Below, in pieces: positions 51,216 through 59,693 of a DNA stretch of 64,000 nt. This DNA is from Methylophaga sp. (lineage in GTDB: Bacteria > Pseudomonadota > Gammaproteobacteria > Nitrosococcales > Methylophagaceae): the NCBI GenBank assembly GCA_030148085.1, contig JASBUF010000033.1:1-64000 (forward strand), given 5' to 3'. A program made the translations under genes and the position numbers. The first letter of the stretch is position 1, and the number at the start of each line of letters is the position of its first letter. The notes beneath the pieces are model-generated. The model was not told where the DNA came from and ran no database searches. It saw only the letters and a program-made list of their open reading frames with translations.

Positions 51216-51293
<78 letters not shown>

Positions 51294-51300
51294 ATAAATC

Positions 51301-51337
51301 AAAGCCTTAGCGTTAAACTTAGCGTTAAGGCTTTTTT
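51301..51337 (+). terminator. Terminator after the tRNA
   Basis: AAAGCCTTA (51301-51309) pairs with TAAGGCTTT (51326-51334), with a T run to 51337. It lies inside the element, so it replaces the original terminator of the rpoD-tRNA transcript, which is now at 59699-59730. Confidence 0.85.
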
Positions 51338-51348
51338 GTTTTTATCTC

Positions 51349-51369
51349 ATGTAGACACTATGTAGACAG
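51349..51369 (+). repeat. Integrase arm-type site, left
   Basis: Two direct copies of TGTAGACA, 11 bp apart from start to start, form a 21-bp block that is repeated exactly at 59509-59529. It lies 56 bp inside attL. Confidence 0.75.
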
Positions 51370-51488: not shown

Positions 51489-52667
51489 TTGAAAATAGAA
51501 AATATTGAGATTAGTGGTGTGGGAGGCATTGATAACATTGATATTAGCTTTTCACCCGGGTTCAATTTTATTTGTGGACCGAACGGTGTTGGTAAAACAA
51601 CAATTCTAGAGTGTGTCGCTCATAGTTTTACTTCAAGTTCTACGGAAATTTTAAAAAGAAACGTCAGGCATGAAAGAGGCTCTTTCTCGTCGGTTATCGA
51701 GAATGATGGCTCACGAGAAACTATAAATAGTAACGTGCTTGATTTTGAGCCAGGGTCTCAAACAAGGATAATGGGTAGACACCAACTATCAAGAAAGCTT
51801 CTATCCCTAAAGGTAACGAGAACATTTAGTTATCAAGCTTTGAGTGCTGTTGCGCGTGATACAGATAAAGCTGATGGCGTGATTCACAATGAGGTGAAAA
51901 ACGGCGTAAATATACATGAAGTAAAGAACTGGTTCGTCAACAGGTTCCTATACTCAGGTCATGTTGGCGCGCTCAGTGATATTCAGATAGATAATTTAAA
52001 TTTGGCTAAAGAGTGCTTTTCAGTATTGAATCCAGACTTTAGATTCAGAACAGTCAGTGCAGCATCTAATGAAATCATGATTGACACCCCGAGTGGGGAG
52101 ATATACTACGAGTACTTATCTTCAGGATTTAAATCATCTTTATCAATAATCTTTGGGATCATTAAGGATATTGAATACAGGTTCAAAGACCCCGGATTGA
52201 GAGCCAGAGATTTTGATGGAATTATTTTAATTGATGAGCTGGAATTACATCTTCATCCAGAGTGGCAGGCTAGGATATCGGTAATATTAAAAGAGATATT
52301 TCCTTATGCCCAGTTCATAACAACTACTCATAGCCCTCACGTATTGCAAAATGCTGAACCAATGGAAATTATCGCGCTTGGTTTTGATAATGACAGGGTT
52401 GTAAGAAGAGATCTCACTCAATGTGAGTATGGCTTCAAAGGTTGGACTGTGGAGGAAGTGCTGGAGGATGTTATGGGGATGGAAGATACCAGAACACCGA
52501 TTTATCAGGAATACATGAAAGTATTTGAAGATGCCGTTGCTGATGATGACGTAGAAAAGGCCAGCGATGCATATGAGCAACTTGATAAGTTGCTTCACCC
52601 GGAAAATCACCTCAGGAAGCTCTTAAAATTCGATATGGCAACCCTTAGCAAGGGGGAGAGTGAATGA
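51489..52667 (+). CDS. Septu-like ATPase (PtuA-type)
   Basis: A 392-residue ABC/SMC-type ATPase. Walker A is GPNGVGKT (30-37), the signature LSSGFKS (210-216), Walker B IILIDE (245-250) followed by LELHLHP, and a switch histidine in TTTHSPH (281). The middle part is not recognised. The gene overlaps an HNH nuclease gene by 4 nt (ATGA), the arrangement of PtuA-PtuB in Septu anti-phage systems and of the effector pair of some retrons. The start is TTG 51489, with AGGGA at about 9 nt. No reverse transcriptase is nearby, so a stand-alone Septu is favoured. Confidence 0.8.
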   Translation: MKIENIEISGVGGIDNIDISFSPGFNFICGPNGVGKTTILECVAHSFTSSSTEILKRNVRHERGSFSSVIENDGSRETINSNVLDFEPGSQTRIMGRHQLSRKLLSLKVTRTFSYQALSAVARDTDKADGVIHNEVKNGVNIHEVKNWFVNRFLYSGHVGALSDIQIDNLNLAKECFSVLNPDFRFRTVSAASNEIMIDTPSGEIYYEYLSSGFKSSLSIIFGIIKDIEYRFKDPGLRARDFDGIILIDELELHLHPEWQARISVILKEIFPYAQFITTTHSPHVLQNAEPMEIIALGFDNDRVVRRDLTQCEYGFKGWTVEEVLEDVMGMEDTRTPIYQEYMKVFEDAVADDDVEKASDAYEQLDKLLHPENHLRKLLKFDMATLSKGESE

Positions 52668-53398
52668 TCAAATTGCAAAGGAGTGCAAAGCCAGGTTTCT
52701 TAGATCATGCAAAAGTAATTGAACTAACGGATAAGTTCATCCAAACACAAGACTCTGTATGGAATCATCAGGAAATAAAAAGGAACCTACTAAGCTCATC
52801 ATATGAGAAATGTGCATATTGTGAGTGTTTATTGACTGAAGAAAGCAAATATATGGAAGTCGAACACTTCCGGGATAAAAAACATAACCCGCTGCTGGTA
52901 GTTATTTGGAACAATCTGTTGCCAGCATGTAAGCGCTGTAATGGTAAGAAAGGCACGCATGATGTTGATGTTGAGCCGATAGTAAACCCATATGATGATG
53001 ATCCCAGCGACCATCTTTATTCAAAAAATTATCGACTTAAGCCCAAAACAACAGAAGGTAGCAATACTATTGACTCTCTCTCCCTAAACGATAGGGAACG
53101 TTTAGTAATGGCAAGGTTTGATATTGGAGAGAAAGTTCAAGAATTAGTCGGCACGGCGTCAGAACGTCTAGAGTCCTTCATTAATCAGCCCAGCATGATT
53201 CGAAGGAATAAACTAGTCGATATTGTTGAAAATCTTCTGAAAGAAAGCCAAAGAAGGTCAGAATATGCAGCTTGCACTGCATCTGTTTTGATTGGTGATA
53301 ATGAATTTCAAAATATTATTTCAGAAATGAAAAGGCTAAGACTCTGGGATTCAAGCCTGGACGCCCTATATAATGAGGCAGACTCTATAAAACTCTAA
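52664..53398 (+). CDS. Septu-like HNH nuclease (PtuB-type)
   Basis: A 244-residue HNH-fold protein. Structural cysteine pairs are Cys50-Cys53 (CAYC) and Cys89-Cys92 (CKRC). The catalytic core reads VEHF (His68) and WNNLLPACKRCNGKKG, with Asn84. The N terminus (KLQRSAKPGFL) and CAYCE segment resemble the PtuB/TIGR02646-type nucleases. It probably cuts phage or host nucleic acid when the ATPase is triggered. Coupled to the ATPase gene by ATGA; the next gene is convergent. Confidence 0.8.
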   Translation: MIKLQRSAKPGFLDHAKVIELTDKFIQTQDSVWNHQEIKRNLLSSSYEKCAYCECLLTEESKYMEVEHFRDKKHNPLLVVIWNNLLPACKRCNGKKGTHDVDVEPIVNPYDDDPSDHLYSKNYRLKPKTTEGSNTIDSLSLNDRERLVMARFDIGEKVQELVGTASERLESFINQPSMIRRNKLVDIVENLLKESQRRSEYAACTASVLIGDNEFQNIISEMKRLRLWDSSLDALYNEADSIKL

Positions 53399-53446
53399 TG
53401 GATTTAAACCTAAATCGTACAGTTATTGACAGAACTCCAAGTGAAA

Positions 53447-53488
53447 GCCAACTAAACCATCTAAATAGGTTTAGTTGGTTTAGTTGGC
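53447..53488. repeat. Hairpin with two alternative right arms
   Basis: GCCAACTAAACC (53447-53458) can pair with GGTTTAGTTGG at 53468-53478 or with GGTTTAGTTGGC at 53477-53488. The two right arms overlap as a tandem repeat. It lies between two convergent stops. No T run follows on the plus strand, so a factor-independent terminator is not clear. Confidence 0.55.
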
Positions 53489-53504
53489 TGGCAATAATGA
53501 TAAT

Positions 53505-55070
53505 TTATAAAAAAACAGGATTGATCCTGTAGTTAGGCAGGGGAGGCCTTCCCCCGGCACTAGATGCGTTTCTCAGCTCTATATCTAGCCAGTTCTCATC
53601 AATCAAAATCCGGCAAGCAGCCTCTACTTGAGTTCTATCCTTTAGCCCATACCAACCTTTGTTGTAGACATTTTTTGCTGTAAATGGGTTAGGTAAGGCT
53701 TTTTCCTTAATTTTTTTACTTAAAATTATTGCTGCTTCCTGCTCTGGTTTGTCTGCCATCGAATAAATCTTTCTGGCATGACTTTCAAGGTAATTGCACC
53801 AGCTCACGGCAAGACGTGCTGATTGTGCCCTGATTGGGCCGCTGTAGCCCGTTTCGATACAGTCCAAACAATGAAACACTAACGAGAGGCTGGGCATCAG
53901 AGAACGATATTTACCAAAATGCTCAAGCATCAATGGGTTGTCTTCCATAGGTATTTTTTTAGTTTGTAGCTCTGTTAGCCAGGTGTTGAAGACTTTTTGA
54001 GCTTCCTCATCGAACCTGAAATAGGGCCTGCTGTTTTCACCATCGTCATTCGCACCTAACTCTCTAAAGTCGCACTCAGCGAGTTTGAATAAAATATTCT
54101 CAACTTTTTCTTTGGCTTCATAATTGGGCTTTTGGTCTATTAACTCCCATAGTTTTGGTGTTTCGGGCCAGACGGCAAGCTGGAGTCTCTGTATTAGCCC
54201 ATCGTTGTTACCTTTAATAGCTTGAAAGAGGTAACGCTTGAGCTTGTCTGGTTGAATGCCACCTAATAGGCTAATACAAATGTTTTTTGCTTCAGTAAGG
54301 CCCCTGGAGATTTTCATATCGGTGTAACTACCGTTACCATTCCAGCCCTCAAGGAAGTAACCACGCTCATCTGCATGCTCTTCGCGATCCCATCTAACCA
54401 GAAGAGCAGTTAATTCATCTCTAAAGACAAGAAGCCCCCTGTCATTTTGTTCTTGAATCAGGGTCATGCTTTGAACACTTGTTTCGTTGGTTTTAAATAG
54501 ACGTCTGTTAGGTGCCTGTTCTGATTTTCTATGGAGTTCAGCATAATCATGTTTGAGTATAGCCATGGCATCAGCATCAACGGTGCCTGTCACTCCCTTA
54601 CCTTTAGCGAGGTCCTTCATTCTCTTCTCAATATCTTTGAGCTTGAAATCGGTTTCTAACTCATCAGCTATGAAAAGACTTTTTTGGTTCTCATACTCGT
54701 CTCCGTAATGTGCTTGCAGCTTTTCAATCATGCGCATTGCTTCTTGCATACTGGGCGATTTAAGCACCACGGATGGCTGACCAACGCATGCTCCCCATAG
54801 ATTAGGTATTACCTCCCAATTGTCCGCCTGCTTGGGGCGTATCGAGCAACCTGAGCCAATCACAGAAGCAAAGATAACGATCGCAGAGACAGTGGAAAAA
54901 TCTGCTGGGGTTTGCATTCGATGGCTTACATCCCGTAGCCAATCTTTTAAAGGTTCTGGTATCAGCTCTTCAGCCATTTTTGCAACTTCGGGAACCGATG
55001 TTTTTATCTCCCCTGGTTCACCCCATTCTTTATAAGGGGATTCAGCTCTTTTTTCTTTAAAGGAAAACAT
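53505..55070 (-). CDS. DUF3987 (YfjI-like) protein
   Basis: A 521-residue protein of the DUF3987 type found in P4-like and other integrative elements. Family segments are DFSTVSAIVIFASVIGSGC, the P-loop-like GQPSVVLKSPSMQEAMR (about 96-112) and LLGGIQPDKLKRYL. A C-terminal winged-helix-like part follows. It probably works in replication of the element as a helicase/primase-related protein; the activity is not proven. ATG 55070 with AGGAGG upstream. Confidence 0.82.
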   Translation of the reverse strand: MFSFKEKRAESPYKEWGEPGEIKTSVPEVAKMAEELIPEPLKDWLRDVSHRMQTPADFSTVSAIVIFASVIGSGCSIRPKQADNWEVIPNLWGACVGQPSVVLKSPSMQEAMRMIEKLQAHYGDEYENQKSLFIADELETDFKLKDIEKRMKDLAKGKGVTGTVDADAMAILKHDYAELHRKSEQAPNRRLFKTNETSVQSMTLIQEQNDRGLLVFRDELTALLVRWDREEHADERGYFLEGWNGNGSYTDMKISRGLTEAKNICISLLGGIQPDKLKRYLFQAIKGNNDGLIQRLQLAVWPETPKLWELIDQKPNYEAKEKVENILFKLAECDFRELGANDDGENSRPYFRFDEEAQKVFNTWLTELQTKKIPMEDNPLMLEHFGKYRSLMPSLSLVFHCLDCIETGYSGPIRAQSARLAVSWCNYLESHARKIYSMADKPEQEAAIILSKKIKEKALPNPFTAKNVYNKGWYGLKDRTQVEAACRILIDENWLDIELRNASSAGGRPPLPNYRINPVFL

Positions 55071-56195: not shown

Positions 56196-58175
56196 ATGCA
56201 GATTAGATATCGCCCCGAGATTGACGGTCTAAGAACAATTGCGGTTCTGGCGGTCATCATTTATCACGCCCAGTTCATGCTGGGAGGAGAGCACTTTCTT
56301 AAGGGTGGTTTCCTAGGGGTAGATGTCTTTTTTGTGATATCGGGGTTTTTGATTACCTCGATCATCATGAAAGAGCTGAATACAGAGGGTACGTTTTCAT
56401 TTCTTGGCTTTTATGAAAGGCGAGCACGCCGAATCTTGCCTGCATTATTTCTGGTCATTCTTGTCGCTTTACCTTTAGCCTGGTACTTGCTCTTACCTAC
56501 ACAAATGACAGACTTTGGTAAATCGATTCTGAGTACATTGCTGTTTGGGTCTAATTTCTACTGGTTTGATTCATTGCAAGAGTATGGTGCCGAGTCAGCA
56601 TTGCTGAAGCCTTTCTTACATACCTGGTCTTTGGCGGTCGAAGAACAGTATTACATTCTCTTTCCTGTCCTACTGATGGTCATATACAAATGGTTTAAAA
56701 GCTATACGGTGGTACTTCTCACCGCAGGTCTTTTACTAAGTTTGGGGCTATCTGATTATGTGACTGGTAAAAATCAGTCGTTGTCCTTTTACATGCTGCA
56801 CACGCGTTTTTGGGAGCTGTTGGCAGGGTCACTACTTGCCAACATTCTTTATTTTCACCCTCAGAAAGAGAATGATGCTTTTCTGAACAAGACAATGCCG
56901 ATACTGGGCTTATATCTCATTGGCTACTCATTATTTTTTATCGACCTCGATAGTAACCATCCTGGATATGTCACTTTGTTGCCTGTCATTGGCACAGTAT
57001 TAATAATTTGGTTTGCGAACGAAAAAGACTTAGTCACACAGCTCTTGTCGAGTCGGTTGTTCGTCGGTATAGGATTAATTTCATACTCTTTATATCTCTG
57101 GCATTACCCCATCTTCGCATTTGGCAGGATCATAGAACCCTCTCCTGATTGGCTACACAAGACAGCCTGGTTATTTTTGACGGTTATCTTCTCAGTGGCG
57201 GCTTATTTCTGGGTTGAAAAGCCATTTCGCAATAGGAATAGACTCTCACTGAGAGCCTTTTCAACGATTATTGGTGTTACAGCCCTGCTTATTGCCTCAT
57301 TCTCAATCTTTCTGATGTCAGAGCATGATTCAGTACCTAAAAATGATCGTTTGAAAGCCTTGTATGGTGAGAATGTAATAGATAACCAACTTCTTAAAAG
57401 GAAAAGCTGGGATATCTTGGATAAGATTCATTACGAGCTCGGTTATGAAACTGAACGAAAAGGAAATGCTGTAACGGCGCCACGATCGGAGTCGGAAAAG
57501 CTCTGGTTCACCTCAAAAGCAAAACTTAAAGTTCTTATTGTTGGAAATTCTCATGGTAAAGATCTTTTCAATGCATTCACTACTAATGCAGAGCAGTTTC
57601 CTGGTATTGAATTTGCGAGATATGGCATTCATACAAAGTCTTCTAAAGAGGCTATAAAGACAATGAAAGCAGCGCCAAACTTCAAAGCTGCAGATGTGAT
57701 CATTATATCGACAAGGTTTGGAAAATTAGATAAGGCGGATAGAGCTAATCACGTGAGTATTAAAAAGCTGCCAGGCTTTATCGATACCTTAAAAGAATCA
57801 GGTAAAAAAGTGATACTGACTTCGAATACACCTGAGTTTTTTGCGTACAAGGGCTACGACAATATCTTCGATGGTTACATGAGAGAGAAGGGATCACTAT
57901 TTGACAAGGAGGAGCTCAATACCCTTTATTACTCAATGAAAGCGTCAGATGTCGATGAGGTAAATAACAAACTGCGAGAGATAGCCCAGAATAAAAACAT
58001 CACTTATCTTGATAAGCATTCAATCATTTGTAGTGATATCAAAATGCAATGTGATGGTGTAACGGATGATGGCTTAAAAACTTTTTATGACTATGGCCAT
58101 TATACCTTGGAAGGGGCAAAATACTTTGGCTCGAAAATCGCTGAGCAAGGCTGGCTTAAGAAGCTGAGTGAGTAA
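56196..58175 (+). CDS. OafA/YrhL-like O-acyltransferase with SGNH domain
   Basis: A 659-residue protein. The N-terminal acyltransferase-3 domain has about ten transmembrane helices, with catalytic His in IIYHAQF (about 23) and the RxxR-type motif RRARRILPAL. A C-terminal SGNH hydrolase-like domain follows (about 445-659), with serine in VGNSHGKDLF and the Asp/His pair in DYGHYTLEGA. Such proteins O-acetylate lipopolysaccharide or exopolysaccharide, changing phage receptors. RBS weak. AT-rich codon use differs from the chromosome, in keeping with transfer. Confidence 0.88.
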   Translation: MQIRYRPEIDGLRTIAVLAVIIYHAQFMLGGEHFLKGGFLGVDVFFVISGFLITSIIMKELNTEGTFSFLGFYERRARRILPALFLVILVALPLAWYLLLPTQMTDFGKSILSTLLFGSNFYWFDSLQEYGAESALLKPFLHTWSLAVEEQYYILFPVLLMVIYKWFKSYTVVLLTAGLLLSLGLSDYVTGKNQSLSFYMLHTRFWELLAGSLLANILYFHPQKENDAFLNKTMPILGLYLIGYSLFFIDLDSNHPGYVTLLPVIGTVLIIWFANEKDLVTQLLSSRLFVGIGLISYSLYLWHYPIFAFGRIIEPSPDWLHKTAWLFLTVIFSVAAYFWVEKPFRNRNRLSLRAFSTIIGVTALLIASFSIFLMSEHDSVPKNDRLKALYGENVIDNQLLKRKSWDILDKIHYELGYETERKGNAVTAPRSESEKLWFTSKAKLKVLIVGNSHGKDLFNAFTTNAEQFPGIEFARYGIHTKSSKEAIKTMKAAPNFKAADVIIISTRFGKLDKADRANHVSIKKLPGFIDTLKESGKKVILTSNTPEFFAYKGYDNIFDGYMREKGSLFDKEELNTLYYSMKASDVDEVNNKLREIAQNKNITYLDKHSIICSDIKMQCDGVTDDGLKTFYDYGHYTLEGAKYFGSKIAEQGWLKKLSE

Positions 58176-59508: not shown

Positions 59509-59529
59509 ATGTAGACACTATGTAGACAG
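59509..59529 (+). repeat. Integrase arm-type site, right
   Basis: An exact copy of the 21-bp block at 51349-51369, with two TGTAGACA units, same orientation, 118 bp inside attR. An inverted single copy (CTGTCTACATGAG) is at 59401-59413 ahead of the integrase gene. Confidence 0.75.
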
Positions 59530-59646: not shown

Positions 59647-59693
59647 ACTCATAATCCCTTGGTCCTAGGTTCAAGTCCTAGTGGGCCCACCAT
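59647..59693 (+). repeat. attR: 47-bp core
   Basis: Exact copy of the 3' part of the tRNA at 51247-51293. It has no 5' half and so is not a functional tRNA gene. Confidence 0.97.

What the first reader, a model, noticed from the sequence alone, without database searches (positions are those of the whole stretch)
51489..53398. Septu-like ATPase/HNH pair as island cargo
An ABC-type ATPase with all motifs overlaps by 4 nt an HNH nuclease gene with two structural Cys pairs, as in PtuA-PtuB. The middle of the ATPase is unlike what I recall of well-known PtuA proteins, so it may be a new subtype. No reverse transcriptase or retron RNA is present.
Basis: partly seen in the sequence, partly recalled or inferred. 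Interest (0 to 1): 0.7.

Follow-up and report, generated by a model that had tools for sequence, protein, structure and literature searches.

The report
Septu defence pair in tRNA island
This is an ordinary two-gene bacterial anti-phage system called Septu, in a compact form already covered by public models, riding on a small mobile DNA element that related bacteria carry at the same spot with other defence genes.

Summary
In detail: ptuA (51489-52667, TTG start, 392 aa) overlaps ptuB (52664-53398, 244 aa) by ATGA. Both match PADLOC Septu profiles over full length (PtuA 531 bits, PtuB 314 bits). High-confidence AlphaFold models match the solved E. coli Septu complex and retron PtuA/PtuB. The key ATPase and HNH residues are invariant across 30 and 26 relatives. 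No reverse transcriptase or msr RNA lies nearby, so this is stand-alone Septu type I.

The 'new subtype' reading is not supported. The middle is about 60 residues shorter than in a tested E. coli PtuA, but PADLOC already holds a 392-residue PtuA profile that fits end to end, and some 30 similar compact pairs exist, mostly in viral and prophage contigs.

The pair is cargo of an 8.4-kb element with perfect 47-bp att repeats, inserted in a CAT-anticodon tRNA gene (probably tRNA-Ile2) beside rpoD. Two congeners carry the same core (integrase, AlpA-like protein, DUF3987 primase) at the same tRNA with different defence-like genes; others lack it. The core resembles PICMI satellites, but those integrate at fis. 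Likely function: abortive infection by a PtuA-controlled PtuB nuclease. The target (tRNA or DNA) cannot be read from sequence.

The parts
51489..52667 (+). ptuA, Septu ABC/SMC-type ATPase, 392 aa, TTG start
   Evidence: PADLOC PDLC00305 6.2e-160 over the full length; AlphaFold pLDDT 90.8, best PDB match the E. coli Septu PtuAB complex 8eea, E 1.9e-20
52664..53398 (+). ptuB, HNH nuclease with two zinc-type Cys pairs, 244 aa, ATGA overlap with ptuA
   Evidence: PADLOC PDLC00342 1.4e-94 over the full length; pLDDT 96, PDB matches retron PtuB and Septu 8eea
51216..51292 (+). tRNA gene, CAT anticodon, target of the element; called Met by ARAGORN, best E. coli match is tRNA-Ile
51247..51293 (+). attL, 47-bp direct repeat overlapping the tRNA 3' part
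   Evidence: 100% identical to 59647-59693
59647..59693 (+). attR, second copy of the 47-bp repeat
51301..51334 (+). terminator-like hairpin just inside attL, kept in islands L055 and L056
51349..51369 (.). left copy of 21-bp repeat ATGTAGACACTATGTAGACAG, possible integrase arm site (inference)
   Evidence: also at the left ends of L055 and L056
59509..59529 (.). right copy of the 21-bp repeat
53505..55070 (-). DUF3987 primase-like protein, element core
   Evidence: PF13148 8e-68; 79% and 71% identical in islands L055 and L056
55202..55465 (-). AlpA/excisionase-like HTH_17 protein, element core
   Evidence: PF12728 1.4e-10, TIGR01764 excisionase; 82% and 67% identical in L055 and L056
55545..56111 (-). 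188-aa ORF of unknown function
   Evidence: no Pfam or NCBIfam match, no match in L055/L056
56196..58175 (+). AT3-SGNH surface acyltransferase, second cargo slot
   Evidence: PF01757 and PF19040
58186..59388 (-). tyrosine integrase with arm-binding domain
   Evidence: PF00589, PF13356; 92% and 76% identical in G370 and G383 at the same tRNA

Best explanation
A complete stand-alone Septu (type I) anti-phage system carried as swappable cargo of a tRNA-inserted, satellite-like integrative element. Shown: gene pair, predicted folds, intact motifs, absence of retron parts, element boundaries, and cargo variation between congeners. Inferred: the PtuA ATPase assembles with the PtuB HNH nuclease and keeps it in check; a phage-triggered change releases it; PtuB then cuts an essential nucleic acid (host tRNA, as in E. 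coli Septu EcB88 and retron-Eco7, or DNA, as reported for E. coli ATCC 25922 Septu) and stops phage production, probably with growth arrest of the cell. Likelihood that it is a Septu defence system: about 0.9. Likelihood of tRNA against DNA as target: about even.
For: Full-length PADLOC matches for both genes. AlphaFold models with pLDDT 91 and 96 whose top PDB matches are Septu and retron PtuA/PtuB complexes. Catalytic residues invariant across relatives 37-60% (PtuA) and 32-55% (PtuB) identical. A ptuB-type ORF directly follows ptuA in 41 of 42 examined loci, the exception being a contig end. No retron RNA or RT. Perfect 47-bp att repeats. Same core with different defence-like cargo in G370 and G383; site without the element in G160. 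Mechanism from PMC13096335 and PMC11555353.
Against: I found no tested member of this compact branch. NCBIfam PtuA/PtuB equivalog cut-offs (built for the retron Ec78 effectors) are not reached (145 of 500 bits; 73 of 150 bits). The shorter middle could change assembly or trigger.
Confidence: 0.9

Rival explanations
1. A new Septu subtype with a distinct mechanism because the ATPase middle is different.
For: About 60 fewer residues between Walker A and Walker B than in E. coli Septu EcB88; identity to solved PtuA only 14-20% in structural alignments.
Against: PADLOC already holds full-length 392-residue PtuA and matching PtuB profiles; about 30 relatives have the same compact size; same fold and same gene pairing.
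Confidence: 0.06
2. The pair is a retron effector that has lost or lies away from its reverse transcriptase and msr-msd.
For: The NCBIfam matches are to retron Ec78 PtuA/PtuB.
Against: No RT or msr RNA in the element. The YxDD-containing ORFs tested near relatives proved to be terminases or a capsid protein. Relatives of this compact branch stand alone as a pair.
Confidence: 0.02
3. The pair serves the mobile element, excluding competing phages or elements from the cell, rather than being kept as host immunity. This can be true together with the best explanation.
For: It is element cargo; most relatives found are in viral contigs, some on contigs with P2-like terminases, and a distant one is next to the KS9 phage integrase; cargo swaps between islands. 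One of 24 same-genus genomes has the pair.
Against: Not exclusive of host benefit; helper or competitor phages unknown. The viral-contig collection was the main source of relatives, so the share of viral hosts is biased.
Confidence: 0.4

Closest known systems
Septu type I (PtuA-PtuB), PADLOC PDLC00305/PDLC00342 branch
   Same: Full-length profile match, gene order, compact 392-aa PtuA and 244-aa PtuB
   Different: Nothing found at family level; nearest sequenced relative is 60% (PtuA) and 55% (PtuB) identical (L061)
E. coli Septu (ATCC 25922, PDB 8eea; EcB88, PMC13096335)
   Same: Same predicted folds, same Walker and HNH residues, two-gene system without RT
   Different: About 18% identity in the structural alignment; about 60 residues fewer between Walker A and Walker B
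Retron I-A effectors PtuA/PtuB (Ec78/Eco7, Ec83)
   Same: Same predicted folds and gene pair
   Different: No RT, no msDNA; PtuA about 160 residues shorter; below NCBIfam cut-offs
PICMI satellites of Vibrionaceae (PMC10803314), for the carrier element
   Same: Integrase, AlpA-type PF12728 protein, DUF3987 primase, same order, small size, defence-gene slot beyond the primase
   Different: Sits at a tRNA gene rather than fis, which the authors call a hallmark; no integrase-overlapping gene; mobilisation by a phage not tested

Membership tests
Septu type I | PtuA ATPase matching Septu profiles | tested here: met
   PDLC00305 6.2e-160, residues 1-387 of 392
Septu type I | Adjacent PtuB HNH nuclease | tested here: met
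   PDLC00342 1.4e-94, residues 1-244 of 244, ATGA overlap
Septu type I | No reverse transcriptase (PtuC), which would make it type II/retron I-A | tested here: met
   No RT ORF in the element, no msr RNA; definition in PMC8565338
Septu type I | PtuA and PtuB folds | tested here: met
   Foldseek top hits Septu/retron PtuA and PtuB
Septu type I | Protection from phage dependent on ATPase and nuclease residues | not testable with these tools
   Residues present and invariant; activity needs an experiment
Retron I-A (Eco7-like) | RT and msr-msd next to ptuAB | tested here: not met
   NCBIfam NF041760/NF041761 below cut-off
PICMI satellite (carrier element) | Integrase, AlpA and DUF3987 primase together | tested here: met
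   PF00589, PF12728, PF13148
PICMI satellite (carrier element) | Integration at fis | tested here: not met
   Integrated in a tRNA gene next to rpoD; hallmark stated in PMC10803314
PICMI satellite (carrier element) | Induction and packaging by a helper phage | not testable with these tools

The most novel reading that the evidence does not exclude
The element is a member of a PICMI-like phage-satellite family that uses the tRNA gene beside rpoD instead of fis, has two cargo slots for defence or surface-changing genes, and spreads compact Septu as anti-competitor cargo.
Probability: 0.35. Interest if true: 0.4.

Novelty: new member of a known kind. Interest (0 to 1): 0.22.

Why it matters
It adds one divergent, complete Septu pair to a compact branch that seems untested, and ties it to a small mobile element whose congeners carry other defence genes in the same slots. 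The pattern (defence cargo swapping on satellites) is already documented for P4-like elements, PICIs and PICMIs.

Tried and rejected
A search for close relatives in genome contigs with the single protein gave only two loci, so viral contigs and plasmids were used. A whole-class genome search mostly returned weak partial matches of the kind any related P-loop ATPase gives and was not used as evidence. YxDD motif hits near relatives were tested as possible RTs and proved to be terminases or a capsid protein. The hairpin at 53446-53489 was considered as a retron-type RNA: no Rfam match, so not pursued. The consensus promoter hits in the region equal the number expected by chance. The structural papers on E. 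coli Septu and retron-Eco7 (PMC12318543, PMC12673091) were not in the library; what I say about them comes from papers citing them or from PDB titles. The host species could not be named with the tools used.

Full report
OBSERVATION. The two ORFs are present exactly as described: ptuA 51489-52667 (+, TTG start, 392 aa) and ptuB 52664-53398 (+, 244 aa), overlapping by ATGA. The TTG start is supported by homologues that begin at the same residue and by the PADLOC profile, which aligns from its first position.

IDENTITY. PADLOC-DB gives PtuA PDLC00305 at 530.8 bits (E 6.2e-160, protein 1-387, profile 1-390 of 392) and PtuB PDLC00342 at 314.1 bits (E 1.4e-94, full length). Pfam sees AAA_15/AAA_21 and a sub-threshold HNH. 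NCBIfam models built for the retron Ec78 effectors match only well below their cut-offs, as expected for a different branch. AlphaFold models (pLDDT 90.8 and 96.0) match the E. coli Septu complex 8eea (E 1.9e-20) and retron PtuA structures for the ATPase. For PtuB the matches are retron PtuB and, more weakly, Septu 8eea chain G.

MOTIFS. In 30 PtuA sequences (relatives 37-60% identical to the window's) the Walker A G30-N32-G33-G35-K36, signature S211-G213, Walker B D249-E250 and H-loop H281 are invariant. In 26 PtuB sequences (32-55% identical) C50, C53, H68, N84, C89, C92, N93 and K96 are invariant. In E. coli Septu EcB88 substitutions in the same motifs (K43, D316; H75, N91) abolish immunity (PMC13096335). 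It is shared by the whole compact branch and by the PADLOC profile, so it does not make a new subtype.

RELATIVES. tblastn finds compact pairs on plasmids of Pantoea, Klebsiella, Clostridioides, Azospirillum and Deinococcus and a more distant pair beside the integrase of Burkholderia phage KS9. A viral-contig scan gave 62 loci. In 41 of the 42 loci examined a ptuB-type ORF follows ptuA directly, the exception being cut by a contig end. YxDD-containing ORFs near five relatives are terminases or a capsid protein, not reverse transcriptases. The nearest relative is L061 (60% PtuA, 55% PtuB; tree support 99/96). L062 (54%) sits beside filamentous-phage-like genes, by my own reading of its ORFs.

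CARRIER ELEMENT. A perfect 47-bp direct repeat (51247-51293 and 59647-59693) marks an 8.4-kb insertion that starts in the 3' part of a CAT-anticodon tRNA gene directly after an ORF that reads as the RpoD sigma factor. ARAGORN calls the tRNA Met; the best E. coli match is tRNA-Ile (85%), so it is probably the tRNA-Ile2 gene (the modified-CAU tRNA; in E. coli ileX lies near rpoD, from my own knowledge). Element GC is 41% against 51% on the left flank. Its genes are a tyrosine integrase, an AlpA/excisionase-like HTH_17 protein, a DUF3987 primase-like protein, a 188-aa unknown ORF, an AT3-SGNH acyltransferase and ptuAB.

VARIATION BETWEEN CONGENERS. The same core (integrase 92% and 76%, primase 79% and 71%, AlpA 82% and 67%) lies at the same tRNA in two same-genus genomes, G370 and G383. 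Their cargo differs: G370 has a putAbiC protein, an HNH type-IV-like protein and the candidate defence protein PDC-S73; G383 has a helicase, the same kind of HNH protein and PDC-S14. In G160, G373 and G376 the tRNA is followed by other DNA with no match to this element in the stretch read. ptuB occurs in only 1 of 24 same-genus genomes, the window's own.

COMPARISON OF THE ELEMENT. PICMI satellites are defined by integrase, AlpA (PF12728 accepted), DUF3987 primase and integration at fis, with a defence hotspot between primase and fis (PMC10803314). The present element has the three core genes in the same order and its Septu cargo between primase and the att end, but it fails the fis criterion, and phage induction is untested. 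I call it PICMI-like, not a PICMI.

MECHANISM. Shown: a complete, intact gene pair of Septu type I (definition with and without RT in PMC8565338). Inferred: PtuA controls PtuB, infection releases the nuclease, and cutting of an essential nucleic acid stops phage production. Published targets differ: tRNA-Tyr variable loop for Septu EcB88 and retron-Eco7 (PMC13096335, PMC11555353), nicked DNA for E. coli ATCC 25922 Septu as cited in PMC11555353, probably not tRNA for retron-Eco4. Sequence alone does not decide the target here.

VERDICT. Ordinary: a new, divergent member of a well-known defence family, on a small tRNA-inserted element. The mild point of interest is the element family with exchangeable defence cargo.

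Noticed in passing
window 56196-58175: AT3-SGNH acyltransferase (659 aa) fills the slot next to the integrase where G370 carries a putAbiC protein; it might change surface sugars and so phage adsorption (inference).
   Followed up: partly
L055 (G370:C11) and L056 (G383:C3): Sister elements with the same integrase, AlpA and DUF3987 genes at the same tRNA carry PDC-S73, putAbiC, PDC-S14 and HNH type-IV-like restriction proteins.
   Followed up: yes
window 51349-51369 and 59509-59529: 21-bp repeat ATGTAGACACTATGTAGACAG just inside both ends, also at the left ends of the sister elements; likely integrase arm-binding sites.
   Followed up: partly
window 51301-51334: The element brings a terminator-like hairpin that would end transcription of the rebuilt tRNA gene; it is conserved in the sister elements.
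   Followed up: partly
window 51216-51292: The CAT-anticodon tRNA is called Met but is closest to E. coli tRNA-Ile, so probably tRNA-Ile2.
   Followed up: yes
window 53446-53489: 20-bp, 95% complementary inverted repeat with repeated TTTAGTTGG between the convergent ptuB and DUF3987 genes; terminator or origin-like element, not resolved.
   Followed up: partly
L058 (G374:C1:349000-368990) and L057 (G388:C66:42500-50900): Further insertions of about 19 kb and 7 kb between the tRNA and a second att-like copy at the same tRNA, with distant integrases: the site looks like an integration hotspot.
   Followed up: no
L062: Compact ptuAB (54% identical) beside Zot-like and replication-initiator-like genes of what reads as a filamentous-phage-type element.
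   Followed up: no
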